Shown here: in pieces, positions 27,817 to 50,645 of the stretch | Numbering within the stretch: position 1 is the stretch's first letter | How the letters are laid out: the number at the start of each line of letters is the position of its first letter | NCBI RefSeq assembly: GCF_003044185.1 | Contig: NZ_PYYB01000001.1 | Coordinates: 806,001 to 870,000 of the forward strand | Reading direction: 5' to 3' | Length of the DNA stretch: 64,000 nt | Source: Paraconexibacter algicola | Lineage (GTDB): Bacteria > Actinomycetota > Thermoleophilia > Solirubrobacterales > Solirubrobacteraceae | Position numbers and translations under genes: made by a program | The notes under the pieces: model-generated | The model's input: only the letters and a program-made list of their open reading frames with translations | The model's database searches: none | Told to the model about the DNA's origin: nothing

Positions 27817-30018
<2,202 letters not shown>

Positions 30019-30450
30019 TCAGGGGGTTGTCTCGGAACGGCAGTCGGGGCACAGGCCCCGGAAGACGACCTCGGCCTCGTCGATGACGAAGCCGTGGTCG
30101 TCGGACGCGACCAGGCACGGCGCGTGGCCGACGGCGCACTCGACGTCGGCGATCGCCCCGCAGGATCGACAGACCACGTGGTGGTGGTTGTCACCGACCC
30201 GTGACTCGTAGCGGGCGACCGAGCCCGGAGGCTGGATGCGGCGCACGAGCTGCGCGTCGGTGAGCGCCTGCAGCACGTCGTAGACGGCCTGCTGGGAGAC
30301 GTCGCGCAGGTCCCGGCGGACGTGGCCGATGATCGAGGCCGTGTCCGCGTGCGGGTGGTCGTGCACCACGCCGAGGACCGCGATCCGGGGTCGCGTCACG
30401 CGCAGGGAGGCCCCGCGGAGAAGCTGCTCGAGATCGGCGGTCGCCGGCAC
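30019..30450 (-). CDS. furA: Fur-family redox/metal repressor
   Basis: 143 residues. Winged-helix DNA-binding half (LRVTRPRIAVLGVVHDHPHADTASIIGHVRRDLRDVSQQAVYDVLQALTD), then the dimerisation half with the metal ligands NHHHVVCRSCGAIADVEC (about 85-100) and CPDC near the C-terminus (structural zinc). The GTG at 30450 is chosen because it lies 7 nt after a CATACT -10 box with a -35 TGGACT at 17 bp; the longer frame starts inside the promoter. In mycobacteria furA also gives a leaderless mRNA and represses furA-katG, with relief by peroxide. The katG neighbour supports the same role here. Confidence 0.92.
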   Translation of the reverse strand: MPATADLEQLLRGASLRVTRPRIAVLGVVHDHPHADTASIIGHVRRDLRDVSQQAVYDVLQALTDAQLVRRIQPPGSVARYESRVGDNHHHVVCRSCGAIADVECAVGHAPCLVASDDHGFVIDEAEVVFRGLCPDCRSETTP

Positions 30451-30457
30451 TCCGACG

Positions 30458-30487
30458 AGTATGCCACTCATTCTGGAACAAGTCCAG
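30458..30487 (-). promoter_or_regulatory. leaderless furA-katG promoter with candidate FurA operator
   Basis: Minus strand -35 TGGACT (30481-30486), 17-bp spacer, -10 CATACT (30458-30463). A perfect inverted repeat CTGGA-N5-TCCAG (30473-30487) covers the -35 box, where FurA would block polymerase. Confidence 0.65.
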
Positions 30488-30523
30488 TTTACGGCGGTGG
30501 AGGCGCGCCAGCCCGGCGCGGGA

Positions 30524-30550
30524 TTCACACGACGGTCACAGGACCGTCAC
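30524..30550 (+). promoter_or_regulatory. PHO box: three direct repeats at 11-bp spacing
   Basis: TTCAC (30524), GTCAC (30535) and GTCAC (30546) recur at exactly 11 bp, each followed by A or C. This is the arrangement of actinobacterial PhoP boxes. It lies about 60-80 bp before the PhoX-type phosphatase start, with TACCAA (30574-30579) as a possible -10. Confidence 0.6.
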
Positions 30551-30606
30551 CCATGTGCGACACGGTGCGCAGGTACCAACCCCACCCCACGGAGTCCGCA
30601 CACACC

Positions 30607-32013
30607 ATGGCACCCGTTCCCCCCACCGCCGTCGAGCCGGACGAGCCCACCGGCCTCTCCCGCCGCGAGATGCTCTCGCGCAGCGCCCAGGGCGGCCTCG
30701 GCCTCGCCCTCTCCGGCAGCCTCGGCCTGCTCTTCGGCGGCCCCGCCGCCGCCCACGGCCGCCCCGCCGGCTACGGCCCGCTGATCCCCGACCCCGCCGG
30801 GATCCTCTCGCTCCCGCAGGGCTTCCACTACTCGGTCATCGCCGAGTCCGGCGTCACCCGCCTGGAGACCGGCGAGCCCACCCCCGCCGACCCGGACGGC
30901 AGCGCCGCGTTCCCGCTGCGCCGCGGCGGCACCGCGCTGATCGTCAACCACGAGATCTCCGGCAGCGACGCGCCGACCGTCCCCACCGTCCCCGACCACA
31001 CGTTCAACCCGGCCGCCGGCGGCGGCACCACGACGATCGAGGTCGACGCGCGCGGTCGCCGCGTCCGCGAGTACGTGTCGCTCGCGGGCACCGTCAACAA
31101 CTGCGCCGGCGGTCGCTCGCCGTGGGGCACCTGGCTGACCTGCGAGGAGACGGAGGCGACCGTCGCCGGCGTCCAGCACGGCTGGGTCTTCGAGGTCGAC
31201 CCGTACGACCAGCGCGCCAACCGCGCCCCGAAGCCGATCAAGGCGCTCGGCCGGTTCTCCCACGAGTCGGTCGCCGTCGACCCGCTGCGCGGCGTCATCT
31301 ACGAGACCGAGGACGCCGGGACCCCCAACGGCCTGTTCTACCGCTGGACCCCGCCGCGCGGCCTGCGCCGGCTCGGCCGCGGCGTCCTGCGCACGCTGCC
31401 CGACGATGCGGGCACGCTCGAGGCGCTGCGGGCCCTGCGCCCGGACGGGACCTTCGTGCCGGACCTCTCCCCCGCCCGCGAGGTCGGGACGCGGTACCGC
31501 ACCCGCTGGGTCACCGTCCCCGACCGGTTCGCGGCGACCACCCCCACGCGCAAGCAGGCCTACGCCGAGGAGCCGACCCGCTCGCGCAAGCTCGAGGGCA
31601 TGTGGTGGGGCGACGGCGGCTGCTACTTCGTCTGCTCGTTCGCCCGCACCGCCGACGGCAGCGCCGGGGTCCACGACGGGCAGGTCTGGTTCCTCGACCC
31701 GCGCGCGCAGACGATCGAGCTGAAGATCCACTTCGAGTACACGCCCGACCAGGACGGCGACGCGGACGGGCCCGACAACATCACCGTCAGCCCGTACGGC
31801 GGGCTGGTCATCGCCGAGGACGGGGAGGGCGCCAGCCACCTCGTCGGCTCGACCGCCTCCGGGGAGACGTTCTTCCTCGCGCGCAACGAGCTGGCGGGCG
31901 AGTCGGAGTTCACCGGCTCGACGTTCTCGGCCGACCGCCGCACCCTGTTCGCCAACGTGCAGTCCCCCGGGCACGTGTTCGCGATCACCGGGCCGTTCCG
32001 CCGCCAGCGGTAG
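30607..32013 (+). CDS. PhoX-type phosphatase (DUF839), Tat-exported
   Basis: 468 residues. A Tat signal (LSRREMLSRSAQGGLGLALSGSLGLLFGGP, about 16-50) implies export folded with its metal cofactor. The body is the PhoX/DUF839 beta-propeller: NHEISGSDAP, NNCAGGRSPWGTWLTCEETEA, GRFSHESVAVDP, YETEDAGTPNGLFYRW, LEGMWWGDGGCYFVCSFA, DGPDNITVSPYGGLVIAEDGEG. PhoX enzymes use Ca and Fe to release phosphate from organic esters outside the membrane. The upstream three-repeat PHO box fits induction by phosphate starvation. ACGGAG precedes the ATG. A perfect 13-bp terminator follows. Confidence 0.88.
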   Translation: MAPVPPTAVEPDEPTGLSRREMLSRSAQGGLGLALSGSLGLLFGGPAAAHGRPAGYGPLIPDPAGILSLPQGFHYSVIAESGVTRLETGEPTPADPDGSAAFPLRRGGTALIVNHEISGSDAPTVPTVPDHTFNPAAGGGTTTIEVDARGRRVREYVSLAGTVNNCAGGRSPWGTWLTCEETEATVAGVQHGWVFEVDPYDQRANRAPKPIKALGRFSHESVAVDPLRGVIYETEDAGTPNGLFYRWTPPRGLRRLGRGVLRTLPDDAGTLEALRALRPDGTFVPDLSPAREVGTRYRTRWVTVPDRFAATTPTRKQAYAEEPTRSRKLEGMWWGDGGCYFVCSFARTADGSAGVHDGQVWFLDPRAQTIELKIHFEYTPDQDGDADGPDNITVSPYGGLVIAEDGEGASHLVGSTASGETFFLARNELAGESEFTGSTFSADRRTLFANVQSPGHVFAITGPFRRQR

Positions 32014-33245: not shown

Positions 33246-34838
33246 TCATCGGACGGGGACCCGGACGGTGGCGGTGAGGGCGCGGCGCGGGGCCGCGGAC
33301 AGACGGGCGCGGACGAGCAGCGGGCGGCCCTCGCGGCGGGCGCGCGCGAGCGCGGTGGCCGCGATCCGGCAGGTGAGGACGACCGGGCGGTCCGCGGCGA
33401 GCGGGCGGGTGCGGCGGCAGCCGGGCGCCGTCACGGCGACGGTCCCGGCGTACGGGGCGCGGACGGTGACGCGCAGCCGCCCGCGGTCGCCGAGCGTCGC
33501 GCGGGCGCGCAGCCGTGCGGGCGCGACGGGGGCGGCCGGCGCGGTGGTCGGGCCGGCCGCCGTCGCGGGCGCCGTCGTGCCGAGGTCCAGCACGGCGGGC
33601 GGCGCCGCCGCGGCGGGCGGGTCGGACGGGACCGACACCGGCGTCCGCTCGGCGGGCCCCGGCCCGGCCGCGGGGGTACGCAGGTCCGCGTCGGCGGGGC
33701 GCTCGCGCGCGAACCGGACGGTCGCGTCGACCGCGGCGGCGATCTCCGCGAGGCTGTGCTCGCGGCGCGGGTCGCGCTCCTGCCACGGGGCGAGGAGCGC
33801 GGCGGTGCGCTGCGCGAGCTCGTCCAGGCCGGCGGTCGCGAGCGTCGTGCGCACGTCGTGGACGGCGTCGGCGTAGGCGCGCAGGCAGGCCGGGTCGCTC
33901 TGGCAGCCGGCGGCGAGCGCGCCGCCCGCCGCGGCGCCGTAGGGGATCCGCTCGCGGAACGCCTGGTCCATGCCCCACGGCAGCAGCGAGAAGACGCCGT
34001 CGGGGCCCGCGTGGAAGAAGACGTTGGACGGGGTCTCCCCGGCCAACCCGGCGTAGCCGTCGAACTGCCCGACGTACCGCTCGGTCGCGAGGTAGCGGAC
34101 GAGCGCGGGGACGTCGAGCGCGGGCGCCACCCGGCGCGCCCAGCCCTCGCCCGGCGTCGCCGCGAGGGCGGCGAGCCGCTCGAGGTCGGTGCGATCGTCG
34201 GGACCCTGGTCGAGCTCGAACGCGTCGGTCATCCCCGGGACCGCGTCGGCCGGCAGGGACGGCGGTCCCTCCGCCTCGTACAGGTGGGTGGTCGCCGGGA
34301 AGTGCCGGGCCAGGAGCGCGGGCTCGTAGGTCTCGACGTTGGCGTAGAGGCCGTAGGGCTCGCCGTCGAGCCGCACGAACGCGTAGCCGACCCGCGGGGC
34401 GGGCAGGCCGACCGCCGCGAACGCCGTGTACGCGAGCAACTCGTGGACCATCGACGGGTCCTGAACCATGTTGTTCAGCGTCAGGGTCCGCACGCCGTCG
34501 GGGCGGTGCCCGCTGTCGAAGCGCAGCTTGAAGGCGGCCTTGCCGTCGAGGTCGCGGAAGGAGGTCGAGCCCTTCAGCCGGATCCGGCCCGGGGCCGCGG
34601 CGACCGTGCGGCCCGGGGTGCGGACGGCGATGGTCGCGGGCGCGTAGGTCGCGGGTGCGCGCCGCAGCGCGTCACGGCTGCCCGCGGCGAGCGTCACGTC
34701 GATCTCGGCGACGGCCGCCGGATCGTAGAGCCAGGCAGCGGGGAGCGCCGCGGCGTGCGCGGTGGCTCCCGGTACGGCCGCCGCGCAGAGCGCGGCGGCC
34801 ATCGTGGGGAGGATCGCCGGGAACCGGCGACCCCTCAT
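33246..34838 (-). CDS. CotH-kinase-like secreted protein
   Basis: 530 residues. Signal peptide (AILPTMAAALCAAAVPGATAHAA), then the CotH core at about 40-350: RIRLKGSTSFRDLDGKAAFKLRF, TLTLNNMVQDPSMVHELLAYTAFAAVGLPAPRVGYAFVRLDGEPYGLYANVE, and NVFFHAGPDGVFSLLPWGMDQAFRE. CotH proteins are atypical secreted kinases that phosphorylate surface proteins. Here the usual PWDxD reads PWGMD, so one of the two acidic residues is lost and activity may differ. A Pro/Ala linker and a C-terminal Ig-like module follow. The ATG overlaps the upstream gene's stop by 4 bp (ATGA). Confidence 0.8.
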   Translation of the reverse strand: MRGRRFPAILPTMAAALCAAAVPGATAHAAALPAAWLYDPAAVAEIDVTLAAGSRDALRRAPATYAPATIAVRTPGRTVAAAPGRIRLKGSTSFRDLDGKAAFKLRFDSGHRPDGVRTLTLNNMVQDPSMVHELLAYTAFAAVGLPAPRVGYAFVRLDGEPYGLYANVETYEPALLARHFPATTHLYEAEGPPSLPADAVPGMTDAFELDQGPDDRTDLERLAALAATPGEGWARRVAPALDVPALVRYLATERYVGQFDGYAGLAGETPSNVFFHAGPDGVFSLLPWGMDQAFRERIPYGAAAGGALAAGCQSDPACLRAYADAVHDVRTTLATAGLDELAQRTAALLAPWQERDPRREHSLAEIAAAVDATVRFARERPADADLRTPAAGPGPAERTPVSVPSDPPAAAAPPAVLDLGTTAPATAAGPTTAPAAPVAPARLRARATLGDRGRLRVTVRAPYAGTVAVTAPGCRRTRPLAADRPVVLTCRIAATALARARREGRPLLVRARLSAAPRRALTATVRVPVR

Positions 34839-37093
34839 CGCGTGACGACCCGGGGCAGCGACGCGACGACGCGCCCGGCGGCGTTGCGGGCGGACAGCCG
34901 GACCTCGACGGCCGAGCCGGTGACGGGCAGCGGCGCGCGCAGCGTCACGGTGCCGTCGGCGGCCGCGCGCCCGGTGCTGCGCAGCAGCACGCCGCCACAT
35001 CCCGGGGTGCGCACGCGCAGCCGCACGGTGCGGGTCCGCCGGGCCAGTGCGCGGCCGATCGAGCCCTGCACGACGATCTCGGTCCCCTGGACCGTCGCAC
35101 CGGTGAGCCGCAGCGGGGCGGTCGGCGGCACCGCGTCGGAGCGCTGCCCGCTGACGCGGGCGCGGTCCGCTCCCTGCAGCCCGGCGCCGGGCCGCGCGAT
35201 CGTGACGGTCGCGTTCCCGGCGGCGTCCAGGGTCGTGCTGCCGAGGCGCTCGAGGCCGCGGTGGACGGCGGCGGGCAGCCCGCCGAGGCTCGTGCCGGCG
35301 GCGATCGTGTAGCGGACGGTGCGGCGCGTCGGCCGGGTGACGCCGAGCAGGACGCGCGGCGGGGTCGTGCACGCGGTGGAGGCGCCCCGCACGGTGGTGA
35401 CGCGGTAGCCGCAGGTCACCGACGTGGCGTTGCCCGCGACGTCCCGGGCGGTCAGGACGACGGTCCGCTCGCCCGGGCTGCGGGTGTCGGCGGGTGCCTC
35501 CACGGCGCTCTCGGCGATCCCGGACCCGGTGTCGCCCGCGGTGCCGCGGACGATCCCGGCACTGCCGACGGCGAACTCCGGTGTCCCGGCGGGGCAGGCG
35601 ACGGCCGGCGCGGTCGCGTCGACGCGCACGGTGCGGCGCAGGACGCCCGAGGCCTGGCCGAGCGCGTCCTGCGCGGCGACCTCGACGACGCGGACCCCGT
35701 CGGCGAGCGTCCCGGACGGGGACAGCGAGCAGCCGTCGGGGAGGGTCGCGGCACTCGGCGAGGGCACGGGCGCGTCGATCGCGCAGCGCACCCGCGCACC
35801 GGCGGGCGCCGGGCTCGTGGCGACGGCGGCGGTCGGGGGCGTGCGGTACCAGCCCTCGCCCCCGTCGGGAGCCGCCGGGGTCAGGCGCAGCTCGGGCTCC
35901 AGCGACACGAGCAGCCGGGCGGTGAGGACGCGGCCGATCTCGAAGGGGGGCTCGTCGATCGTCGCGATCGCCCGGTCGTCGAGCTGCGCGAGCCCGGCCG
36001 CGATGTTCGGGGGCAGGGCGGCGAGCCCGACGGTCAGCGGCTCGAGGAACCAGCCCGGGTCCTGGCGGTCGACGGCGACCGGTCGCCGGACCGGCCCGTC
36101 GTCACCGCTGAACTGGCGGGCGACGAGCACGCGGCGACCGTCGGTGGCGGCCGCCGATTGGACACCGGGGGTCAGCCCGTCGGTGCGCGCGGCGCTCACC
36201 GTGCGGGTGACCGCCAGCTCCCCGGCCCAGCCGCCCGCCGGGCGGGGCAGGACGTACGCGTCGACGTCCACGCCGGGGGCGCGCCGGTCGATCGACGGGA
36301 CGACGATCGCCTCGTCCGCGACGACGGGGTCGCCGACCACCCCGCCGACGGTGGCGGTGGCGGCCGGGGCCGTCGGGTCGAGCGCGGCCCAGCCGGTCGC
36401 GGGGCGCTCGTAGACGATGACCGTGCCGGGGTTCCCGGCCATGACGACCAGCAGCGATCCGCGGGCGCCGACCGCGCTCGTCGTCGGCAGCGTGCTCACG
36501 GGTCGGTCGGGGAGGACCGTCGCGGCCGGCTGGCCCTCGCCGAAGCCCGTGGGGCCGGGCTCCCAGACGGTCACGGGCCCGCCGCGCCGCGAGCGCCCGG
36601 GCGCGACGCCGGGCCCGGCGACGAGCGCGGTCCCGGCGAACGCGAGCACGTCCGCGTTGGCGGGGCGCGCGAGCGTCACGGGCCCGCTCCAGCCGGCGGT
36701 GCCGCGCTGCCAGACCAGGACGTCACGGCCGGCGGTCACCGCCACGACGCCGTCCCGGGCGGCGATCGCGTTCGGGCTCTGGGGCGTCCCGCTGGCGCTG
36801 TCCGGGATCGTGAGCGTGGTGTCGGGCCGGCGCTCGGCGAGCGTCGCCGGCCAGCCCGCCACCGGGCGGTCGTAGAGGTCGACGACGCCCGGGAACGCGT
36901 CGTCGACGGTGAAGCGCGGGCCGCGGGCGACGGCGACGAGGCGGTCGCTGCCCGCCAGGACGGCGGTGCGCCCGTCGAGGTCGGTCACCGACGGGACGAG
37001 CGGGGCCGCGGGCACGAGCGGGCCGGTGGCGGCGTGCCCGACCGTCGGGAACGCGGCGAGCGCGAGCAGCGCCGTCGAGAGCTGGCGAATCAT
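34835..37093 (-). CDS. secreted beta-propeller plus Ig-domain protein
   Basis: 752 residues. Signal peptide (LSTALLALAAFPTVGHAA). Residues about 30-400 are FG-GAP-like propeller blades: NAIAARDGVVAVTAGRDVLVWQRG, DVLAFAGTALVAGPG, SAVGARGSLLVVMAGNPGTVIVYERPATGW, QSAAATDGRRVLVARQFSGDDG. Then Ig-like modules with paired Cys (RVRCAIDAPVPSPSAATLPDGC; SVTCGYRV) and a C-terminal sheet domain (TRTVRLRVRTPGCGGVLLRS). It is a likely surface protein; it is coupled by a 4-bp overlap to the CotH-like gene, so it may be that protein's phosphorylation substrate or carrier. Confidence 0.75.
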   Translation of the reverse strand: MIRQLSTALLALAAFPTVGHAATGPLVPAAPLVPSVTDLDGRTAVLAGSDRLVAVARGPRFTVDDAFPGVVDLYDRPVAGWPATLAERRPDTTLTIPDSASGTPQSPNAIAARDGVVAVTAGRDVLVWQRGTAGWSGPVTLARPANADVLAFAGTALVAGPGVAPGRSRRGGPVTVWEPGPTGFGEGQPAATVLPDRPVSTLPTTSAVGARGSLLVVMAGNPGTVIVYERPATGWAALDPTAPAATATVGGVVGDPVVADEAIVVPSIDRRAPGVDVDAYVLPRPAGGWAGELAVTRTVSAARTDGLTPGVQSAAATDGRRVLVARQFSGDDGPVRRPVAVDRQDPGWFLEPLTVGLAALPPNIAAGLAQLDDRAIATIDEPPFEIGRVLTARLLVSLEPELRLTPAAPDGGEGWYRTPPTAAVATSPAPAGARVRCAIDAPVPSPSAATLPDGCSLSPSGTLADGVRVVEVAAQDALGQASGVLRRTVRVDATAPAVACPAGTPEFAVGSAGIVRGTAGDTGSGIAESAVEAPADTRSPGERTVVLTARDVAGNATSVTCGYRVTTVRGASTACTTPPRVLLGVTRPTRRTVRYTIAAGTSLGGLPAAVHRGLERLGSTTLDAAGNATVTIARPGAGLQGADRARVSGQRSDAVPPTAPLRLTGATVQGTEIVVQGSIGRALARRTRTVRLRVRTPGCGGVLLRSTGRAAADGTVTLRAPLPVTGSAVEVRLSARNAAGRVVASLPRVVTR

Positions 37094-39264: not shown

Positions 39265-39297
39265 TCTCGGATCGGTCGCAGATCGGGCTCGCGACGC

Positions 39298-39337
39298 ACG
39301 ACGGCCCCGGGGCGCCGAGGCGCTCCGGGGCCGTCGT
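39298..39337 (-). terminator. terminator of the giant repeat-protein gene
   Basis: ACGACGGCCCCGG pairs with CCGGGGCCGTCGT in a perfect 13-bp stem; the 14-nt loop can extend it. It lies 25 bp after the stop at 39363. Confidence 0.75.
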
Positions 39338-39362
39338 GGGCGGGCGGTGCCCGGGACCGGAC

Positions 39363-42300
39363 TCAGCTGCTGCAGACCGGCAGCAGCGCGAAGTTCAGCC
39401 CGAGGACGTTCAGCACGTTGATGTTGCCCAGACCCGTCGAGATCAGCAGCTCGCGCCGTCCGCCGCAGGCCAACGAGCCCGTGGAGGTCGAGGCGGGCGC
39501 CGTCACGATCGAGCCGTCGCCGCGCGCCCACACGAAGCGGGCCGAGGCGGTCGCCTTCGACGCCTGCGTGCCGACGTTGAACGAGTTCACCAGCGGCGGG
39601 TAGGAGATCCCGTCCATCACGAACGGCTGCGCCACCCCGCCCGCGTTGCGCGAGTCGAAGAACATGTAGAGCAGCGGCAGGTTCTGCCCGAACGAGCTGA
39701 TCGTCGTGTTCGCCGGCCCGGTCCCGAGGTCCAGGCTGAACGTCTTGAACGTCAGGCCGCCCGCGTTCGTGTCCGGGTCACCGAACTTGATCTCCGGGTC
39801 GGTCGGCGTGAGCTTCAGCTTCGCGCGGAAGGTCGTGAAGTCCGTCGCCGCCGTGCCGGTGCCGAGCGACCCCTGGTCGTCGAAGTTCAGCGACGCCGAG
39901 GCCTTGTACGGCCGGCCGTTGCCGTTGGCGTTGTAGCGGTTGCCGATCTTGTCCTGCGGCGGGCCGCTGCACGGGTTGAAGATGTTGCCGCCCGAGCACC
40001 CGCGCGGCCCCGAGGTCGTGTTCCCCGGGACGTTGGGGTTCGGCCGGCGGCACCCGTTGCCCGGGTCGAGGCACGCGGTGAGCTTCGGCGCGACGTTGTC
40101 GAACGCGAGCTTCGCCGACGGGATCGACCCGAGGTTGGTCGCGAACAGCTCCAGGCGCGCGAGCTTCTGCGAGTTGTCGAAGTTGATCGACGACGGCACC
40201 GACGGGTCGTTGGAGAGGTTCACGAACAGCTTCGTCGAGGCCCCCGGGCGGTTGATCAGGCCGTCCACGTCCGACACGGTGGTCCCCGCGGGGATCGCCG
40301 CGTCGATCGTGATCGGCCGCGCCTTCGCCGGGTCCTGCTGCAGCTGCAGCGCGACCGGCTCGAGGTTGACGTCGATGACCTTCGCCCCCGTGAGCCGCAG
40401 GGCGATCCCGAAGTTCGCCGGATCGGTCGCGAACTTCAGCAGGTCGTTGCTGGCCGTGGCCTGCGTGACCGTGCCGGGGATCGGCGACGCCGGGTCGATG
40501 AACTGCGGCAGCGTGCCGGAGCCCCCGTGGGCGGCCAGGCGGATCTGCCCGATCGGGTCCGGCTGCCCGGCCCCGTTGAGCCCGGCGATCGTCGCGAGCG
40601 AGCCCTCCTCGGGGATCGTGATCGTCGTGCTCAGCGGCAGGTCGTGCAGCGCCGCCTGGACCACGGACGCCCCGGGCAGCAGCTCCAGGCCGCTGGTGTC
40701 GAGCGTCACGAGGCCGATGCGGGCGTTGCCGAGGACCTGCAGCCGCGTGCCGTTCGGCCCGTTGGCGCCCGGGTTGTCCCCGAGCTCGAGCGTCAGGTCC
40801 GACGGGAGGCTGTCGACGAGCGCCTTGACACTGACCGGCGCGCCGCCCTCCTCGAGCGGCACCTCGGCGTCGATGTCGAGCTTCTTGCCGCCGTTGGTGA
40901 GGCCGCGCAGCTTGACCGGGTCGAGGTCCAGCGTGATCGACCGGACGCCGGACAGCCGCGTGCGGATGTCGAAGCCGGAGGTCTGGCTGAACTTCAGGAG
41001 GTCGTTGAGCGTGCCCGCGCCGCCCGCGGCCGCGTCGTAGTCGTCGGCCGGCAGGTTCGCCGTGCCGCTGCCCGCGGCGAGCCGCAGCTGGCCGATCGGG
41101 GTGAGCTGGCCCTGCGCGTCCCGCGCGGTGACCCGGGCGAGGTCGCCCTGGTCGGGCAGCGTCACGTCGACGTCGACCGGCAGGTTCTCGATCTCCGCCT
41201 CGACGGCGTCGGCGCCCTCCAGCAGCTCGAGGCCGCGGGTGGAGAGCTTGACGAGGTCGATCGGCTCGCTGCCCTTGAGCATGAGCTTCGACCCGTTGAC
41301 GGTGTCGCCCTCGAGGTTGTCCCCGAGGCCGAGCTCGACGACGGCGGGCAGCCGGTCGATCGTGCCGGCGACCTCGAGGTCACGGCGCGGCGTGCCGTCC
41401 TCCGCGGTCTGCGGGAGCTTGGCGTCGACCGTGAACACGCGGCCGGCCTGCATCTCGGTCTTCAGCACGAGCGGCGCGAGGTTGACCTCGAGGCGCTTGA
41501 GCTGGAAGACGCGCAGGGCGAGCGCGAGCTGCTCCTGGGTCGGGTCCTCGGCCTTCTCCTCGTCGGTGAGGGTGGCATCGATGATCGCCCCGGCGGTGCC
41601 CGCGGGCAGCACCGGGTAGGAGCGGTTGCGGCTGCGCGCACGGATGTTCACGGAGCCGATCGGCTGGTCGGCCGTCAGCTTGATGCCCGAGAGGTCGGTC
41701 GCCTCCGGGTCCGCCTCGTTGGCCGTGCCGAGACCGAGCGTGAACGCCTGCGGGACGTCCCGCAGGTCGACCTCGATGCCGGTGGCACCGAGGAAGAGCG
41801 GCTCGCGCCCGTCGATGTCGGCGAAGATCTGCCCGATCGGCGCGGAGCCGGTGTACCGGACCTCCCCGGCCTGCAGGTCGAGGTCGAGCGTCAGCTCCTG
41901 CGGCAGGTCGAGGATCTTCGCCTGCGCCGCGAACGCCTCGGTCGAGACGTCGGCGACGAACGGGCCGCCGGCGGTCTTGGACTTCAGGCTGATCGCCTCG
42001 TCGAACTGCACGCTGAGCTCGCGGAGCTCGAGCACGCGGATGCCGACGCGGAACGGCTCGCCCGGCTTGGAGCGCAGGACCGCGCCCTGGGCCGGCTGGC
42101 CCTCCGAGGTCGGGTAGGTGAACTGGCCGGCCTCGTCGGAGGCGGCGAGCTCGATCTTGCCGACCGGGGTGCCGTCGGCGTCCGGGTCGTTCGGGTCGAT
42201 CGCCTTGACGGTCGCGCGCCCGTTGGCCTGCGAGAACGACAGGGCCACGTCGGACGGCAGGCGCTCGATGTCGCCCTGGATGTAGCGGCCGCCGCCGAGG

Positions 42301-45300
42301 ATCGGCTCGTCGGACTCGGCGGACAGCGTCAGGCGCTGGATGCCGACCGGGTCGCCGTTCTCGTCCCGGCCCTTGAACGTCAGGGCGTTCGGGTTGTCGC
42401 TGGAGCCGTCGAGGTCGACGGCGAGCTCCGCCGAGGCGGGCAGGTCGGCGATGTCGGCGACCGCGGTGAGCAGGCCGTCGACGTCGACGTCGGCGACGAA
42501 GCGGCTGCCGGCGGTGCGGTCGATCTGCAGGCCGATGCCGCTGCCGGTGTCGAGGCCGACCGCGAGCTTCTTCAGCCCGGTGACCTTGACCGCGATGCCG
42601 TAGTCGTCGGCGGTGTCGTGGTAGCGGACGCCCTGCTCGGTGAGCGGGAACGGCGCGTCCACGTCGTCGGCGACGTGCAGCTCGAGGTCGCCGAGCGCCT
42701 GGCCGTCCGGGATCGCGACCGTGGCGCCGTTGCCGGCGGAGTCGAGGCCGACGGTGAGGTCGGACGGGACGTCGGTGAGGCGACCCTGGAGCTTGCGCGC
42801 CCGGTCGAAGATCGGCTGGTCGGAGCGGGCCGAGAAGGAGATCTCGTCCACGCCGACGGGCTCGTCGTCGTCGTTGCGGCCCGCGTAGGTGAACCGCGCG
42901 TTCTGCAGGTCGAACCCGAGCGAGGTGCGGGCGGGCAGCTTGTCGATGCGCGCCGTGGCCGTCAGGTCGTCGGTGGTGGCGTCGATCGAGAACGGCGTGC
43001 TGCGCAGCCGCGCGTCGATGTCGACGTCCTGGCCGTCGAGCTGCAGCCCGATGCGGCGGAGGTCGAGGAGGCGGGCGGCGAGCACGAACGGCTGGCCGGC
43101 CTTGTCCTGGTAGATCGCGCCCTGCTCGCCGTCGGCGATCGCCGGGGCGGCCTGGTCCTCGGGGAGGTCGGTCGCGAGGATCGACACCTCCTCGATCGGG
43201 GAGTCCGCGTCGACCGTCGCCGACGGGGCGGCGGGGTCGATCGTGATCGAGGCCCGCTTGGCGAGCCTGCGGATCGTGCCCTCGACGCGGGTGGCGCGCC
43301 CGAGCAGCGTGCCGGTGCGGGCGATCGCCTTGAGGGTGATCTCGTCGATGACGTCGCTGTTGTCGAACTGCAGCGCGCCGCCGTCGAGGTCGAGCGTGGC
43401 GTCGAGCGCGGACGGCAGGTCGGCGATGCGGGCGTCCGCGTCGAGGTCCGCGGTGCGGGCCTTGATCGTGAACGGGCCGCTCGCGGTGCGGGTCACGAGC
43501 GTGACGGTGTCGTCGAGGAGCGCCACGACCTTCTTCAGGCCGCGGACGCGGGCGCCGACCGCGTAGCGGACGGGCGTGTCCAGCAGGACGGCGCCCTGGT
43601 CGTCGTCGGCCGGGAGGGCGTCGGCGAGGCCGGCGACCGTGTCGGCGGCTGCGACCTCGACGAGGCCGATCGGCTCGTTGGCCTCGACGCGGGCGCCGTT
43701 GCCGGCCTGCGCGAGGTCGACGACGGTCAGCGGCGCGAGGCCCTCGACGCGGGCGCGGACCGCGGTCGCGCGGCCGAGCAGCGGCCGGGTGGAGACCGCG
43801 TCGAGCAGGACGCGGTCGATGCCCTCGCCGTGGCCGTCGACGGTGAGCTTGCCGGCGGGCAGGTCGAGGGTCGCGTCGAGCTCCTTCGGGAGGTTCTCGA
43901 TGCGGCCGGTGGCGTTCAGCTCGTCGGTGCGGAAGCGGACCGAGAACGGGCCGCCCTCCGTCTTGGTGCCGACGCGCACGACGTCCCCGGCGACGCGGGC
44001 CGCGACCTTCTCGAACTCGCGGATGCGGGCCGCGATCGTGAACTCGGTGGCGGTGTCGACGACCTTCGCGCCCTGCTCGTCCCCGGCCGGGAGGTCGGCG
44101 GCGCGGTCGGGCGGGGTCGCGGAGACGATGACCTCGGCGGAGCCGATCGGCTCGTTGGCCTCGAGGCGGGCGCCCTCGCCGTCCTGCGCGATGTCGAGCA
44201 CGAGGTCGGCGGGGATCCGCTTGACGGTGGCGTCGAGGTACTTCGCCCGGCCGAGGAGGGCCTCGCGGGCCGCGAGGGCGACGTCGAGGCGCTCGATCGT
44301 GGCGGGCGAGTCGTCGGCGTCGCGACCGACCACGGTGACCTTGCCGTTCGGCAGGTCGAGGGTCGTGTCGAGCTTCGCCGGCAGGTCGCGGACCTGGGCG
44401 GTGCCGGTGAGGTCGTCGGTGTCGACCGCGAGGTCGAACGGGCCGCCGCGCGTGTGCGTCCTCAGCCGCACGAGGTCCTGGCCGAGCGCGGCGCTGACGG
44501 ACTTCAGGCCGAGGATGCGGGCGCCGACGGCGAAGGTGCCGCCGGTGCGGTCGACCAGGGTCGCGCCCTGGCGGTCGTCGGCGGGCAGGTCGCCGCCGGA
44601 GCGGAAGTCGATCGCGCGGTTCGCCGCGACGAGCTCGATCGAGCCGATCGCGTTGGAGGCGTCGACGGACAGGTCGTCCCCGTCGGTGTCGAACCGCAGG
44701 TCCAGGGAGGCGGGGATGTCCTTGACGCGCCCCTGGATCCGGGTGGCGCGGGCGATGAGCGCGCTGCCGGGCCGCGGGTCCGCGGCCGTCAGGTCGAGCT
44801 GCCCGATGCCGCGGGGGCTGCCGTCGGCGGCCTTGCCCTCGAAGGTCAGGCGGCCACCGTCGAGGTCGAACCCGAGGTCGACGTCGGCGGGCAGGTCGCG
44901 GATGTCGCCCGCGACGTCCAGCGCGTCGGTGCGCAGGGCGACCGAGAACGGGCCGCCCGCCGTGACGGCGGAGAGGCGGGGCGCCCCGGTGGTGTCGAAG
45001 GCGACCTTGCGGATCCCGTCGACGCGGGCGGAGACGAGGTACTCGCCGCCGGGCAGGTCGCGGTAGATGGCGCCCTGGCCGCCGCCGGCCGGGAGGGTCT
45101 CGGGGCCGTTGGAGGCGATGATCTCGGCGCGGCCGAGCGCGCGGTCGAGCGTGATGCCGCCCTTGCCGTTCGCGGTCTCGATGCGCGCGTCGAGGCTCGA
45201 CGGGAGGTCGACGAGCGTGCCCTTGAGCTTCGTGGCGCGGCCGAAGAACGGGGTCGTGGAGACGGCGTCGAGCTCGATCCGGCCGATCCCGGTGCCGTGG

Positions 45301-46772
45301 CCGTCGTAGGTGAGGCGGCCGTTGTCGAGGTCGAGGCTGGCGTCGAACCAGGCGGGCACGTTCTTGACGCGGGCGTCGATGCGCTGGCGGGTGTCGACGA
45401 TGCGGGCGAGCAGCGGCGTGGACGCGAGCTTGGCGGACACGGTCGGCGTGCCGCTCAGGCGGGCGGTCGCGGACTGCAGGCCGGGGATCTTCGCGCTGAC
45501 GGAGCGCAGCGTGCCGTCGTCGTCGCTGTAGACGTAGGCGGGCTCGGTGTCGGGGAGGAACTTCGGCTCGCCGTTGGCCTGGCCGAGCTTCGCGAGGCCG
45601 AGCGGGCCGCCGGTGGTGGCGACCTGGACGTCGTCGCCCGCGACCGTGGCGGTGAGCCCGGTCGGCACGTCGGCGAGGTTGAGCTTCGTCTTCTGGCGCA
45701 GGACGCCGTTCTCGGTGCGCTGCAGGGTCGCGTCGATGGTCGCGACGCGCGCCGAGGCCGAGTAGGTGGCGCGGGTGCCGCCGGCGGTGCTGGCGGCGAT
45801 GCTGAGCGTGCCGGGGAGGTTCGTGATCTGCGCGTCGAACGCGTCGGTGGTGGTGCCGTCGACGACGCGGCCGGCCACGGTGGTCGGGCCGGGGCGGTTG
45901 GTCGTCAGGGTCGCGGCGAGGTCGGAGCCGGCGCGCGCGACGATGGTGGCGGTGTCGGGCGAGGCGCCGTAGTCGATCGAGACCTCGGTGGGGTTGACGC
46001 GGGCGCTGGAGGTGCCGTCGAAGAGCCCGGCGATGAGCTTGATGCGGTTGCGCCGCAGCGTCTGGCTGAGGGTGACGCGGAAGTCGCCGCCCGGGCGGGT
46101 GATCGTGTCGAGCGGGGTCTCCAGCGTGAAGCCGCCGGGCGCCTGGTCGGCGGTGGCGTCGTAGCCGAAGGAGAGGTTGCGGCGGCCGAGGATGCGGGTG
46201 GAGGTGTCGGAGACGACGACCTCGACGGACACCGGGAGGTTCGCGGCCGACTTGAGCAGGTCGCGGTTGACCTTGAGGCCGATCGTGTTCAGGGAGGTGA
46301 GGGTGAGCGTCGCGTTGAGGTCGGCGAGCGCCTCGTCGTCGACGTTCAGGGCGGCGGGGACGCCGATCAGCGCGGGGGTCGAGCGGGTGAGGATCGTGCC
46401 GTTGGGGCGCTTGTAGCGCGTGACGACCTCGTAGTGCAGCAGCGAGGAGGCGCAGGTCAGGGAGGTGAGCCCGGAGCCGATGGCGCCGAGGCCGTTGCCG
46501 AGCCCGGGGACGGTCGCGAGCTGCTGGCTGAGCGAGCCGACGGTCGGGCAGACGACGCCGTTGACGAGGGTCGTGGTGGCCCCGAGGGTCTGGGAGACCA
46601 GGCCGGAGGTGGCGGTCGTGGTCTGGTTGACGGTCTGGTTCGTCGTGGTGACGACCGGACCGAGCAGCCCGCCGAGCAGGCCGGCGTTGGCCGCGGGCGC
46701 CGCGGCGAGCGGCGCGGCGACGGCGACGGATGCGACCAGCGCGGCGCGCACGCCGCGAGTGGACCCGAGCAT
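39363..46772 (-). CDS. giant secreted repeat protein (about ten 170-residue repeats)
   Basis: 2469 residues, the longest gene in the window. The ATG at 46772 follows GAAGAGG and opens a signal peptide (VRAALVASVAVAAPLAAAPAANA). Then a Thr/Asn/Gln stretch (TTTNQTVNQTTTATSG), a unique region to about 465, about ten repeats (about 467-2170), and a distinct C-terminal domain with several Cys (ACLDPGNGCRRPNPN, GCSGGNIFNPC). Each repeat contains LPxxLDxxLDLxxGxLTxxG, then RATxxxGxVxxLPxxL, then GSxExxAxx and LPAxDxQGAxxxD, then xVxARxxGLxxV and GPFxVxxxTDxLxAxARI. The chain is almost all beta and acidic. A long beta-groove or filament is plausible. No known family recognised; it has its own regulated promoter and terminator. 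Confidence 0.85.
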   Translation of the reverse strand: MLGSTRGVRAALVASVAVAAPLAAAPAANAGLLGGLLGPVVTTTNQTVNQTTTATSGLVSQTLGATTTLVNGVVCPTVGSLSQQLATVPGLGNGLGAIGSGLTSLTCASSLLHYEVVTRYKRPNGTILTRSTPALIGVPAALNVDDEALADLNATLTLTSLNTIGLKVNRDLLKSAANLPVSVEVVVSDTSTRILGRRNLSFGYDATADQAPGGFTLETPLDTITRPGGDFRVTLSQTLRRNRIKLIAGLFDGTSSARVNPTEVSIDYGASPDTATIVARAGSDLAATLTTNRPGPTTVAGRVVDGTTTDAFDAQITNLPGTLSIAASTAGGTRATYSASARVATIDATLQRTENGVLRQKTKLNLADVPTGLTATVAGDDVQVATTGGPLGLAKLGQANGEPKFLPDTEPAYVYSDDDGTLRSVSAKIPGLQSATARLSGTPTVSAKLASTPLLARIVDTRQRIDARVKNVPAWFDASLDLDNGRLTYDGHGTGIGRIELDAVSTTPFFGRATKLKGTLVDLPSSLDARIETANGKGGITLDRALGRAEIIASNGPETLPAGGGQGAIYRDLPGGEYLVSARVDGIRKVAFDTTGAPRLSAVTAGGPFSVALRTDALDVAGDIRDLPADVDLGFDLDGGRLTFEGKAADGSPRGIGQLDLTAADPRPGSALIARATRIQGRVKDIPASLDLRFDTDGDDLSVDASNAIGSIELVAANRAIDFRSGGDLPADDRQGATLVDRTGGTFAVGARILGLKSVSAALGQDLVRLRTHTRGGPFDLAVDTDDLTGTAQVRDLPAKLDTTLDLPNGKVTVVGRDADDSPATIERLDVALAAREALLGRAKYLDATVKRIPADLVLDIAQDGEGARLEANEPIGSAEVIVSATPPDRAADLPAGDEQGAKVVDTATEFTIAARIREFEKVAARVAGDVVRVGTKTEGGPFSVRFRTDELNATGRIENLPKELDATLDLPAGKLTVDGHGEGIDRVLLDAVSTRPLLGRATAVRARVEGLAPLTVVDLAQAGNGARVEANEPIGLVEVAAADTVAGLADALPADDDQGAVLLDTPVRYAVGARVRGLKKVVALLDDTVTLVTRTASGPFTIKARTADLDADARIADLPSALDATLDLDGGALQFDNSDVIDEITLKAIARTGTLLGRATRVEGTIRRLAKRASITIDPAAPSATVDADSPIEEVSILATDLPEDQAAPAIADGEQGAIYQDKAGQPFVLAARLLDLRRIGLQLDGQDVDIDARLRSTPFSIDATTDDLTATARIDKLPARTSLGFDLQNARFTYAGRNDDDEPVGVDEISFSARSDQPIFDRARKLQGRLTDVPSDLTVGLDSAGNGATVAIPDGQALGDLELHVADDVDAPFPLTEQGVRYHDTADDYGIAVKVTGLKKLAVGLDTGSGIGLQIDRTAGSRFVADVDVDGLLTAVADIADLPASAELAVDLDGSSDNPNALTFKGRDENGDPVGIQRLTLSAESDEPILGGGRYIQGDIERLPSDVALSFSQANGRATVKAIDPNDPDADGTPVGKIELAASDEAGQFTYPTSEGQPAQGAVLRSKPGEPFRVGIRVLELRELSVQFDEAISLKSKTAGGPFVADVSTEAFAAQAKILDLPQELTLDLDLQAGEVRYTGSAPIGQIFADIDGREPLFLGATGIEVDLRDVPQAFTLGLGTANEADPEATDLSGIKLTADQPIGSVNIRARSRNRSYPVLPAGTAGAIIDATLTDEEKAEDPTQEQLALALRVFQLKRLEVNLAPLVLKTEMQAGRVFTVDAKLPQTAEDGTPRRDLEVAGTIDRLPAVVELGLGDNLEGDTVNGSKLMLKGSEPIDLVKLSTRGLELLEGADAVEAEIENLPVDVDVTLPDQGDLARVTARDAQGQLTPIGQLRLAAGSGTANLPADDYDAAAGGAGTLNDLLKFSQTSGFDIRTRLSGVRSITLDLDPVKLRGLTNGGKKLDIDAEVPLEEGGAPVSVKALVDSLPSDLTLELGDNPGANGPNGTRLQVLGNARIGLVTLDTSGLELLPGASVVQAALHDLPLSTTITIPEEGSLATIAGLNGAGQPDPIGQIRLAAHGGSGTLPQFIDPASPIPGTVTQATASNDLLKFATDPANFGIALRLTGAKVIDVNLEPVALQLQQDPAKARPITIDAAIPAGTTVSDVDGLINRPGASTKLFVNLSNDPSVPSSINFDNSQKLARLELFATNLGSIPSAKLAFDNVAPKLTACLDPGNGCRRPNPNVPGNTTSGPRGCSGGNIFNPCSGPPQDKIGNRYNANGNGRPYKASASLNFDDQGSLGTGTAATDFTTFRAKLKLTPTDPEIKFGDPDTNAGGLTFKTFSLDLGTGPANTTISSFGQNLPLLYMFFDSRNAGGVAQPFVMDGISYPPLVNSFNVGTQASKATASARFVWARGDGSIVTAPASTSTGSLACGGRRELLISTGLGNINVLNVLGLNFALLPVCSS
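40260..45370 (-). repeat. about ten degenerate in-frame repeats of about 500-540 bp
   Basis: Repeat starts are marked in the protein by NVPAWFD, RDLPADVD, RDLPAKLD, ENLPKELD, ADLPSALD, DKLPARTS, ADLPASAE, LDLPQELT, DRLPAVVE and DSLPSDLT. The copies are diverged in DNA but keep order and length, so the expansion is old; the last three are more divergent than the first seven. Confidence 0.8.
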
Positions 46773-46816
46773 TGGAACCTCTTCCCCTGATGGCGTTCCG
46801 ACCGCGCTCCCGGCAC

Positions 46817-46872: not shown

Positions 46873-46902
46873 ACGGTAGTGCACCGTCTTGTCGCAGGTC
46901 AA
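46873..46902 (-). promoter_or_regulatory. promoter of the giant repeat-protein gene
   Basis: Minus strand -35 TTGACC (46897-46902), 18-bp spacer, -10 TACCGT (46873-46878). The leader is about 94 nt, unlike the leaderless genes around it. Confidence 0.65.
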
Positions 46903-48188: not shown

Positions 48189-50135
48189 TCAGGCGATCCG
48201 GACCTCGCGACGCCCGTCGAGCTCGACCTCGAGCAGCGCGCTGCCGTCGGCGGCGGCGATGAGCTCGTCCACGAGGCCACCGCGGACGGTGTACTGCCGG
48301 CCGGGCACGAGCTGCTCCAGCCGCAGCGTCGTGCGGACGGGTCCGGCACCGGGCCGCAGGACGAGGTCGAGCGCGTGGCCGTCGGTGACGGCGCGGGCGA
48401 CCTGCACCTCCGGGTAGGCGGCCTCGGCGAGGCGGGGACCGGTCGTCCAGGTCTCGGGCACGCCGTGGGCGATGAGGTCGCGCAGGCCGCTGCGCCGCCC
48501 GAACCGGGCCAGGTTCGCGTAGCAGTTGGCCAGCGGCGAGGCACCGTCGTAGCGGCGGGCGCCGTGGTGGTCGGCGGTGGGGGTGCCGGCGGCGAGCGCC
48601 GTCTCGGCGGCGCGGGCGACGTCCTCGTCGCCGAGCTCGCGCGCGGCCAGCGTGGTGGCGACGTGGCCGAAGGTCTCGGAGCCGAGCTTGTAGTTGCCGG
48701 GGTCCAGGCGGTCGGACACGGCGCGCGGCGTGTGCAGGACGCCGTCGCGCAGCGTCAGCGTGTTCTCGCGCAGCAGCCACCAGGTGCGGTGGGCGATCTC
48801 CGGGAGGGTCGGGTTGAGCCAGAACGAGGTGCCGAGCTGCAGCGCCGCTCCGGTCCAGAAGTTCCAGGACAGGCCGAGGTGCGCGGAGCGCACGCCGACC
48901 ATGCGGCCGTCCGGGCGCAGGAAGTCCGACTCGTAGGCGGCACGCAGGCGGGGCTCGGTGGCGGCGAAGTGGTCGGTGCCGTGCAGCCGGTCGTGGCTGA
49001 GCAGCGTGTTCATCCCGAAGGAGTTGCAGACCGGGTAGATCCAGTTCGGCTCGCAGGCGAAGAGCGCGTAGGGCGAGGCGTCGACGTTGCGGCGGATCTG
49101 GTCGGCGAGCCCGCCGAAGTCGTAGGCGTAGGCCTCGTCCTGCGACCAGCGGAAGGTCAGGGCGCCGGGCCGGCTGTAGCGGTCGTCGTTCAGCGTTGCG
49201 TAGGCCCCGACCATGATCCCGTGCCAGCCCGAGAGCATGATGTTCTCGTGGGTGTCGAGCGGGTCGCGGTTGAGCGACAGGTTCCCCCACGCGTTCTCGA
49301 TCGCCCAGTAGCCCCAGACGCGCCGGTCCAGCATCTTCTCGATCGCGTTGCGCTGGCCCTCGGCGAGGTAGCCGCCGAACGCGGGCGTGCGGGTCAGCTG
49401 GGCCATCGCGAGGCTGTTGGACAGCGCGGTGAGCTGGTACCGCAGCGCCGCCTCGCGGAACTGGTCGATGTGCGTGAAGCCGTCGAAGCGGTCGAGCGGC
49501 TGCAGGGCGAGGTCGAGGCTGTAGCGCAGGTGCGCGAGGTCGTCCTCGGAGTGCTCGACGACGGGCAGGTGCGCCTCGACGGTCGGCGGACCGGTGACGG
49601 TGAAGCGCTCGTGCGCGAGGCGATCGTTGGCCACGCGGCGGCGGGCGAGCTGGCGGCGGTGGCGGACCTCGACGACGAGCCGCGCGAGCAGGGCGAGCGC
49701 GGGGACGGCCAGCGCGACGGCGATCACGGCGCCGGTGCCCGGGGCGGCGTCGTCGGCGCGCCAGGCGGCGAGCCCGGCGGTGAGCGCGAGGACGATCGGG
49801 GGCAGCACGACGGGGCCGGCCGCCCACCAGATCGACAGCGACGAGACGAACGCGAGGGTCGCGACGAGTCCGAGGATCGGCGAGCCCTGGGCCCACAGCC
49901 CGCCGCCCGGGGCGACGATGCCGAGCCCGAGCGCCTGCAGCGCCGCGGACGCCCCGAGGACCGCGGGCAGGACGCCGAGGACCCAGACGGCGGCGTAGAC
50001 CGCGAGCGCCCGGCGCATCCGGGCGGCGCTGACGGGTCCGAGCGCGCCCGCCGGCGGGGGGATCAGCGCGGTGACGGCACGGTCCCCCGGCCGGTCCTGG
50101 GTCACGGGCTGGGGACGGACGAGCAGATCGGTCAT
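48189..50135 (-). CDS. membrane-anchored linalool dehydratase/isomerase-like enzyme
   Basis: 648 residues. Residues about 35-160 hold four hydrophobic helices. The remainder matches the alpha/alpha-barrel of linalool dehydratase/isomerase: RFDGFTHIDQFREAALRYQLTALSNSLA, HENIMLSGWHGIMVGAYATL (His 296/305), and the paired-cysteine motif ACEPNWIYPVCNSFGMN with Cys 361 and Cys 370 nine residues apart, as in the family's active site, followed by HDRLHGTDHFAA. That enzyme interconverts linalool, myrcene and geraniol in Castellaniella. A tertiary or allylic alcohol dehydratase activity is inferred here; the substrate is unknown. Its ATG overlaps the stop of the upstream small membrane protein (ATGA), and the operon lies under a TetR operator. 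Confidence 0.8.
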   Translation of the reverse strand: MTDLLVRPQPVTQDRPGDRAVTALIPPPAGALGPVSAARMRRALAVYAAVWVLGVLPAVLGASAALQALGLGIVAPGGGLWAQGSPILGLVATLAFVSSLSIWWAAGPVVLPPIVLALTAGLAAWRADDAAPGTGAVIAVALAVPALALLARLVVEVRHRRQLARRRVANDRLAHERFTVTGPPTVEAHLPVVEHSEDDLAHLRYSLDLALQPLDRFDGFTHIDQFREAALRYQLTALSNSLAMAQLTRTPAFGGYLAEGQRNAIEKMLDRRVWGYWAIENAWGNLSLNRDPLDTHENIMLSGWHGIMVGAYATLNDDRYSRPGALTFRWSQDEAYAYDFGGLADQIRRNVDASPYALFACEPNWIYPVCNSFGMNTLLSHDRLHGTDHFAATEPRLRAAYESDFLRPDGRMVGVRSAHLGLSWNFWTGAALQLGTSFWLNPTLPEIAHRTWWLLRENTLTLRDGVLHTPRAVSDRLDPGNYKLGSETFGHVATTLAARELGDEDVARAAETALAAGTPTADHHGARRYDGASPLANCYANLARFGRRSGLRDLIAHGVPETWTTGPRLAEAAYPEVQVARAVTDGHALDLVLRPGAGPVRTTLRLEQLVPGRQYTVRGGLVDELIAAADGSALLEVELDGRREVRIA

Positions 50136-50557
50136 GCGAGGGGCCTGAGGGTGTCGGGGACGGGGCGGCGGGACGCCGGGGCGTAGGCGTCGCGGACCAG
50201 GAGCGCGAGGCCCGCGACGACGAGCACGGGACCGGGCGCGTGCAGGAGCTGCGAGTGCGCGACGACGTGGAGCACGTGCGCGAGGAGCTCGGTGACGAGC
50301 AGCCAGGCGAACCCGGCGGCGATGAGCGCCGACGGCAGCGTCGGGCGGCGGAGTCGGCGCGCCCGACGGGGCCCGGCGGCCTCGGGTCGTGGCGCGACGG
50401 CCGGCCGCTCGGGCGCGACGACCGGGTCGGTGCCCGGCACCGGCCGGCGGGCGGGCGGCGCGAGCAGCTCGGCGGTGGCGAAGCGCCCGGGCATGAGCCG
50501 GGCGAGCGCGGGGCGCAGGGCGCCCAGGACGAGTGCGATGGCGATGCAGCAACCCAT
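50132..50557 (-). CDS. small membrane protein of the Ldi-like operon
   Basis: 141 residues with three hydrophobic segments: the N-terminus (MGCCIAIALVLGALRPAL), about 78-98 (LPSALIAAGFAWLLVTELLAHVLHVVA) and about 105-122 (APGPVLVVAGLALLVRDAY), with a Pro/Arg-rich cytoplasmic loop between. No family recognised. Its 3' end overlaps the enzyme gene by 4 bp, and its promoter lies within the TetR operator region, so it is probably a subunit or membrane partner of the Ldi-like enzyme. Confidence 0.7.
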   Translation of the reverse strand: MGCCIAIALVLGALRPALARLMPGRFATAELLAPPARRPVPGTDPVVAPERPAVAPRPEAAGPRRARRLRRPTLPSALIAAGFAWLLVTELLAHVLHVVAHSQLLHAPGPVLVVAGLALLVRDAYAPASRRPVPDTLRPLA

Positions 50558-50581
50558 GGTGGTGTGGCGCCGGACCAGAAG

Positions 50582-50599
50582 TGAGACGGGACCGTGTCA
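50582..50599. promoter_or_regulatory. second, imperfect TetR operator
   Basis: TGAGACG-N4-CGTGTCA, the same layout as the perfect operator 45 bp away with one mismatched pair. It lies just downstream of the predicted start of the minus-strand transcript. Confidence 0.5.
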
Positions 50600-50615
50600 G
50601 GTCCGGCGTGCCCGG

Positions 50616-50645
50616 ACGGTACGAGTTGACACGACGCCGTGTCAA
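50616..50645 (-). promoter_or_regulatory. promoter with perfect 20-bp TetR operator
   Basis: Minus strand -35 TTGACA (50640-50645), 18-bp spacer, -10 TACCGT (50616-50621). The perfect palindrome TTGACACG-N4-CGTGTCAA (50626-50645) covers the -35 and spacer. It lies between the divergent TetR gene and the Ldi-like operon and is the obvious repressor site. Confidence 0.75.

What the first reader, a model, noticed from the sequence alone, without database searches (positions are those of the whole stretch)
39363..46772. A 2469-residue secreted protein built of about ten 170-residue repeats with no recognised family
Seen: signal peptide, unique N-terminal 440 residues, about ten ordered repeats (LPxxLD ... 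RAT ... LPAxDxQGA ... GPFxV ... ARI), Cys-containing C-terminal domain, own promoter, leader and terminator. The all-beta, amphipathic repeat pattern could form a long groove or filament like bridge-type lipid-transfer or adhesive proteins. That is inference; it is the best candidate here for an undescribed system, together with the surface-protein genes beside it.
Basis: partly seen in the sequence, partly recalled or inferred. Interest (0 to 1): 0.8.

Follow-up and report, generated by a model that had tools for sequence, protein, structure and literature searches.

The report
Giant secreted amphipathic beta-repeat protein family
This actinobacterium exports a 2,469-residue protein made of eleven all-beta repeats that match no described family; it is predicted to form a long sheet that is greasy on one face, and in its order it is found mainly in genomes packed with MCE-type lipid-transporter genes.

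Summary
The gene is on the minus strand (window 39363-46772): 2,469 aa, with a signal peptide, an N-terminal domain (repeats start at residue ~313, not 440), eleven repeats of 138-167 aa, and a C-terminal domain with four invariant cysteines. Pfam, NCBIfam, PHROGs and PDB sequences give nothing significant. The family is real and undescribed: homologues with the same three-part plan and 1-13 repeats occur in 11 of 232 genomes of the order (including Patulibacter, six loci in P. medicamentivorans) and in two distant actinobacterial families. AlphaFold gives a confident all-beta, single-body model (pLDDT 84.5/77.0, pTM 0.73/0.67) with about 13 strands per repeat. Strands alternate hydrophobic and polar residues as strongly as in TamB and YhdP. 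The best PDB fold match of the C-terminal part is LPD-3, a bridge-like lipid-transfer protein, but it is weak (E 2.9e-4, TM 0.11). No carrier tested has Omp85 or TamB, so a classical inter-membrane bridge is unlikely. Within Solirubrobacterales, carriage goes with large MCE/MlaD expansion (within-genus p 5e-4; no control family tested). Best reading: an extracellular amphipathic beta-rod that binds hydrophobic ligands or surfaces. Structure moderately likely, function inferred. CotH synteny is not conserved.

The parts
39363..46772 (-). gene for the 2469-aa secreted repeat protein
46683..46772 (-). signal peptide (aa 1-30, predicted cut after ANA)
   Evidence: sequence; same pattern in L007, L012, L013
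46440..46682 (-). N-terminal low-complexity/helical segment with Cys75 and Cys107 (aa 31-111)
45837..46439 (-). N-terminal beta domain (aa 112-312), marks the family; acidic loop LNVDDE/LNVDDD
   Evidence: alignment A2, model, found in all members that reach it
45384..45836 (-). repeat 1 (divergent)
44916..45380 (-). repeat 2
44406..44915 (-). repeat 3
43914..44402 (-). repeat 4
43443..43913 (-). repeat 5
42963..43442 (-). repeat 6
42489..42962 (-). repeat 7
41928..42464 (-). repeat 8
41409..41927 (-). repeat 9
40857..41372 (-). repeat 10
40290..40829 (-). repeat 11
39366..40289 (-). C-terminal domain with a CX6C pair, a later Cys and a Cys two residues from the end (2234, 2241, 2436, 2467 invariant)
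   Evidence: alignment A5
46777..46786 (-). purine-rich ribosome-binding-like stretch before the ATG
   Evidence: sequence
46873..46902 (-). TTGACC-18-TACCGT, possible promoter; below the scan threshold
   Evidence: sequence; scan negative
39297..39338 (-). GC-rich hairpin after the stop codon, no T run
   Evidence: sequence; scan negative

Best explanation
A secreted giant protein of a previously undescribed actinobacterial family. Its tandem repeats (about 13 short strands each, arranged as three four-strand sub-repeats) join into one long, continuous, amphipathic beta sheet that makes a rod or gutter, closed at both ends by cysteine-containing caps. One face of the sheet is almost wholly aliphatic and the other polar and acidic. 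Outside the cell the hydrophobic face most likely holds hydrophobic ligands or lies on hydrophobic surfaces (lipids, sterols, oils), concentrating them for the cell; repeat number sets the length. Shown here: the gene, the repeats, the family, the alternation, the all-beta prediction and the co-occurrence with MCE transporters. Inferred: one continuous sheet, open groove, ligand binding, link to uptake.
For: Signal peptide and no predicted anchor. Confident all-beta models with pTM 0.73 for 716 residues and 0.67 for 854 residues, high for a flexible string of domains. Fold-search lists are dominated by long antiparallel meanders (outer-membrane barrels, ApoB, LptD, LPD-3, teneurin shells), not by strings of Ig-like domains; LPD-3 is the top PDB hit of the C-terminal part (E 2.9e-4, prob 0.35). 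Hydrophobic alternation z = 8.9 versus 10.2 for TamB and 6.4 for YhdP, visible in the consensus of 95 repeats. Within Solirubrobacterales carriers are the MCE-rich genomes: 8 of 14 genomes with at least 35 first-look PF02470 candidates carry it, against 3 of 218 others; within-genus permutation p = 5e-4, exact p = 0.00125 in genomes at least 90% complete.
Against: TM-scores to all solved structures are about 0.1, so no fold assignment is made. The coordinates could not be inspected: an amphipathic sheet can equally be folded on itself with a buried core. The distant carrier family f22 has no MCE genes at all, and one MCE-rich genome (G007, 94% complete) lacks the protein. MCE genes were the only family tested for co-occurrence, without a control family. 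No MCE gene was seen beside the gene in the neighbours examined.
Confidence: 0.4

Rival explanations
1. A structural or adhesive surface rod: the repeats bury their hydrophobic face against themselves or a partner and simply make a stiff stalk or matrix fibre, with the end domains doing the binding. Hydrophobic ligands play no part.
For: Secreted, no enzyme motif, repeat number varies from 1 to 13, paralogue expansion in P. medicamentivorans. In the distant family f22 the gene sits in a cluster of secreted proteins (Ig-like Big_3_5 protein, NHL-repeat protein, two small secreted proteins; a subtilase-like gene in one) shared by two genera. One member carries FG-GAP-like repeats in front (weak).
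Against: The f22 cluster is not found around the Solirubrobacterales genes. It does not explain the MCE co-occurrence. No cell-wall anchor found.
Confidence: 0.33
2. A bridge-like lipid-transfer protein in the strict sense, spanning two membranes and letting lipids slide along a continuous groove.
For: Length, repeat architecture, amphipathic alternation, LPD-3 as top fold hit.
Against: No Omp85 and no TamB in ten carrier genomes, while controls ring: no sign of a second membrane. A cleavable-type signal peptide instead of a membrane anchor. No RBG helix-plus-crossing-loop element seen. hhalign to TamB and YhdP is null.
Confidence: 0.06
3. An ordinary array of independent beta-sandwich domains (Ig-like or similar) too diverged for Pfam.
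For: All-beta repeats in a secreted protein are commonest in Ig-like adhesins (general knowledge); amphipathic alternation also fits sandwiches.
Against: Pfam scan of 65 repeats gives only scattered hits, one member with Big_3_5 at E 0.28. The fold lists are not led by Ig-like arrays. pTM of 0.67-0.73 implies a fixed arrangement across repeats.
Confidence: 0.15

Closest known systems
Repeating beta-groove (RBG) bridge-like lipid-transfer proteins (VPS13, ATG2, LPD-3/BLTP1)
   Same: Very long chains of beta-meander repeats of about 150 residues with one hydrophobic and one hydrophilic face (definition in PMC7613979); LPD-3 is the best PDB fold hit of the C-terminal part.
   Different: About 13 strands per repeat in three four-strand sub-repeats instead of five strands plus a crossing helix/loop; secreted, Cys-capped, bacterial; TM about 0.1; no sequence hit.
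Bacterial AsmA-like proteins (TamB, YhdP)
   Same: Large beta-rich proteins with the same strength of hydrophobic alternation; described as large open beta-sheet structures with a hydrophobic groove (PMC10665443).
   Different: Envelope-spanning proteins of diderm cells; no Pfam hit and no hhalign match; carriers lack TamB and Omp85.
ApoB100 beta sheets of lipoprotein particles
   Same: Long amphipathic antiparallel sheets for a lipid surface; appears in both fold-search lists.
   Different: Weak match (prob about 0.1, TM about 0.1); eukaryotic; no sequence relation.
Teneurin/Rhs YD-repeat beta shells
   Same: Long strip of antiparallel sheet; teneurins are hits 2-4 below 1e-3 in one search.
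   Different: No RHS/YD repeat match in Pfam; TM about 0.06.
Repeat-built bacterial surface adhesins (Ig-like, Big domains)
   Same: Secreted, giant, variable number of tandem beta repeats.
   Different: No Ig-like match, no anchor, one-body rather than bead-like prediction.

Membership tests
RBG bridge-like lipid-transfer proteins | Repeat of a five-stranded meander plus a helix/loop crossing back over the groove | tested here: not met
   DSSP of the model shows 13 strands in repeat 2 and no helix in the repeats; definition from PMC7613979
RBG bridge-like lipid-transfer proteins | Concave hydrophobic, convex hydrophilic groove | tested here: inconclusive
   Strand alternation z = 8.9, but no coordinates to see curvature
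RBG bridge-like lipid-transfer proteins | Sequence or fold homology | tested here: inconclusive
   No Pfam hit; LPD-3 top fold hit E 2.9e-4 but TM 0.11
RBG bridge-like lipid-transfer proteins | Two membranes to connect | tested here: not met
   No Omp85 in ten carriers, controls positive
AsmA-like / TamB family | TamB or AsmA domain | tested here: not met
   Pfam none; hhalign to TamB E 0.38 and YhdP E 0.2, probability below 1%
AsmA-like / TamB family | N-terminal membrane anchor | tested here: not met
   Cleavable-type signal peptide (sequence)
Ig-like / Big-domain adhesins | Match to an Ig-like or Big Pfam family | tested here: not met
   (one of 65 repeats at E 0.28)
Rhs/teneurin YD shell | RHS/YD repeat | tested here: not met
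   Pfam none
The new family defined here | N-terminal beta domain + one or more of the 145-column repeats + Cys C-terminal domain | tested here: met
   N-domain found in the window protein and all homologues that reach it, Cys pattern kept, repeats 1-13
Extracellular hydrophobic-ligand binder | Binds lipid, sterol or hydrocarbon | not testable with these tools
   Only indirect: alternation and MCE co-occurrence

The most novel reading that the evidence does not exclude
An extracellular hydrophobic conduit of single-membrane bacteria: a secreted beta-groove tens of nanometres long that collects lipids, sterols or oils outside the cell and hands them through the wall to the many MCE importers, which would explain why monoderm Solirubrobacterales hold dozens of MCE genes of unknown function.
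Probability: 0.15. Interest if true: 0.85.

Novelty: new variant of a known kind. Interest (0 to 1): 0.55.

Why it matters
It defines an unannotated protein family with a new repeat, a fixed three-part plan and a confident all-beta prediction, in poorly studied actinobacteria. If the hydrophobic-face reading is right, it would be a bridge-like beta sheet working outside a single-membrane cell. It would also give a testable partner for MCE transporters, whose presence in multiple copies in monoderm Solirubrobacterales has been noted as unexplained (PMC10665443).

Tried and rejected
Database identity: Pfam, NCBIfam, PHROGs and PDB sequences for whole protein, N-domain and repeats: nothing significant. 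Viral structures: two weak hits below 1e-3 with TM 0.1, not followed. Plasmids by tblastn: none. Synteny with CotH and the surface genes: not conserved; only orthologous position next to inositol-phosphate synthase in G014. Homology to TamB/YhdP by hhalign: none. Named genomes by single-sequence scan: none; worked with alignment A2. An alignment mixing C-terminal rows with three-repeat rows (A4) was messy and dropped for A5. Literature on these proteins: nothing found. The tRNA-Ala that ARAGORN places inside the gene is taken as a false positive, since it lies in conserved coding sequence of repeat 1 on the opposite strand.

Full report
Observation. The feature is a real gene on the minus strand, 46772-39363, 2469 aa, with codon-position GC 0.70/0.50/0.99 as in the other genes of the window. 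Shuffled copies of the protein give no hit. Repeats within the protein are only 14-43% identical, so the array is old.

Family. The same genome holds a second copy, 2068 aa, on another contig. Full-length homologues occur in one other genome of the genus (2236 aa) and one other genus (about 2791 aa), 44-49% identical over the alignment, differing mainly by whole repeats. Window repeats 1-10 match repeats 1, 2, 3, 6, 7, 8, 9, 10, 11, 12 of the 2791-aa protein in order, so that one has extra internal repeats; this gene and the window gene also share the nearby inositol-1-phosphate synthase gene. A profile search of 232 genomes of the order finds carriers in 11, in six genera. In 399 genomes drawn from the class all hits lie in this order. 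Named carriers are Patulibacter minatonensis, P. medicamentivorans, another Patulibacter and uncultured Solirubrobacterales; the P. medicamentivorans genome has six N-domain loci. In 397 genomes drawn from the phylum the repeat also turns up in three genomes of two distant families, f22 and f74, with 2-10 repeats, the same N-domain and the same Cys-rich end. Repeat number runs from 1 to 13. A tree of the N-domain separates f22/f74 from the Solirubrobacterales and shows at least two older subfamilies in the latter, though most deep forks are weakly supported.

Anatomy. The N-terminal region carries a conserved Cys pair in a helical segment and an acidic loop LNVDDD..PDL. Each repeat has three sub-parts with a common pattern of a strand x-A-x-I, a kink at LP and a strand L-x-L-x-L (by eye). 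Cysteines are confined to the end domains; a CX6C pair, a later Cys and a Cys at or near the C-terminus are kept in nearly all complete members, distant families included. No anchor, LPXTG or wall-binding motif was seen.

Structure. AlphaFold2 on residues 73-788 with 52 rows gives mean pLDDT 84.5 and pTM 0.73; on residues 1616-2469 with 17 rows, 77.0 and 0.67. Both are almost entirely strand. Repeat 2 alone has 13 strands. For the second the best hit is LPD-3, a bridge-like lipid-transfer protein (E 2.9e-4, probability 0.35, TM 0.11), then teneurins. These targets share a long antiparallel meander; I read this as a long continuous sheet, not as homology. If 13 strands per repeat stack at 4.8 A, eleven repeats would have a contour near 70 nm at most (inference).

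Amphipathy. In the repeats 21% of 8-residue windows alternate strongly, against 9% in shuffles (z 8.9); TamB gives z 10.2, YhdP 6.4, TamA 2.3. The mean profile of 95 repeats shows alternation in nearly every strand. One face is therefore aliphatic and the other polar; the mature protein is strongly acidic (316 D+E, 222 K+R).

Is it a lipid bridge? Ten carrier genomes lack Omp85 and TamB while the control genomes ring, so there is no sign of an outer membrane to reach, and the protein is exported without a membrane anchor. hhalign with TamB and YhdP is null. The RBG definition (five strands plus a crossing helix/loop, PMC7613979) is not met. It may work like such a protein; it is not shown to be one.

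MCE link. PMC10665443 reports multiple MlaDE homologues of unknown function in monoderm Solirubrobacterales. I tested PF02470 as the one family suggested by the hypothesis. Carriers G000, G006, G014, G187, G188, G193 and G230 have 35-91 MCE domain matches; 13 chosen non-carriers have 0-13, except G007 with 85; carriers G098 and G128 have 6. Genome size does not explain it in genus g8, where three larger genomes lack the protein. Caveats: one family tested, no control families, MAG incompleteness, and f22 carriers have no MCE genes.

Context. In the window the downstream genes on the same strand are two secreted proteins without Pfam hits and a CotH-kinase gene; upstream lie a glyoxalase-like gene, a CAP-domain gene and a linalool dehydratase/isomerase-domain gene. 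None of this is kept at the other Solirubrobacterales loci, except that a CAP-like gene lies about 10 kb from the G014 orthologue. In f22 two genera share a cluster: Ig-like (Big_3_5) protein, NHL-repeat protein, the giant, and two small secreted proteins. That supports an extracellular assembly and is the main support for the rival structural reading.

Conclusion. The most likely mechanism is an extracellular amphipathic beta rod that handles hydrophobic material, at about 40%, with a purely structural or adhesive rod close behind at about 33%. Settled here: gene, repeats, family, spread, predicted all-beta single body, alternation. Not settled: groove geometry, ligand, partner.

Noticed in passing
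window 33246-35372 (-): CotH-kinase gene (PF08757, E 3.8e-30) at the end of a run of secreted-protein genes; not linked to the giant gene at other loci.
   Followed up: partly
window 48189-50645 (-): 818-aa protein with a linalool dehydratase/isomerase domain (PF18566, E 6e-83), terpene-related by name, near the giant gene.
   Followed up: no
window 45662-45756 (+): ARAGORN calls a tRNA-Ala inside conserved coding sequence of repeat 1 on the other strand; probably a false positive.
   Followed up: partly
G000, G006, G007, G014, G187: 60-91 MCE/MlaD domain matches per genome in some monoderm Solirubrobacterales, against 0-13 in most relatives examined.
   Followed up: partly
L099:3904-17290 and L100:345-12238: Conserved cluster of secreted proteins (Ig-like, NHL repeat, giant, two small secreted proteins; a subtilase-like gene in L100) in two genera of a distant actinobacterial family.
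   Followed up: partly
L077:1385-8028: Two family genes in tandem in P. medicamentivorans, the second cut by the contig end.
   Followed up: no
L050:7287-10043: A one-repeat member whose N-domain is preceded by FG-GAP-like repeats (weak, E 0.004).
   Followed up: no
window 27817-30000 (-) and 30322-32013 (+): Peroxidase-domain gene (PF00141) and a PhoX phosphatase gene; ordinary.
   Followed up: no
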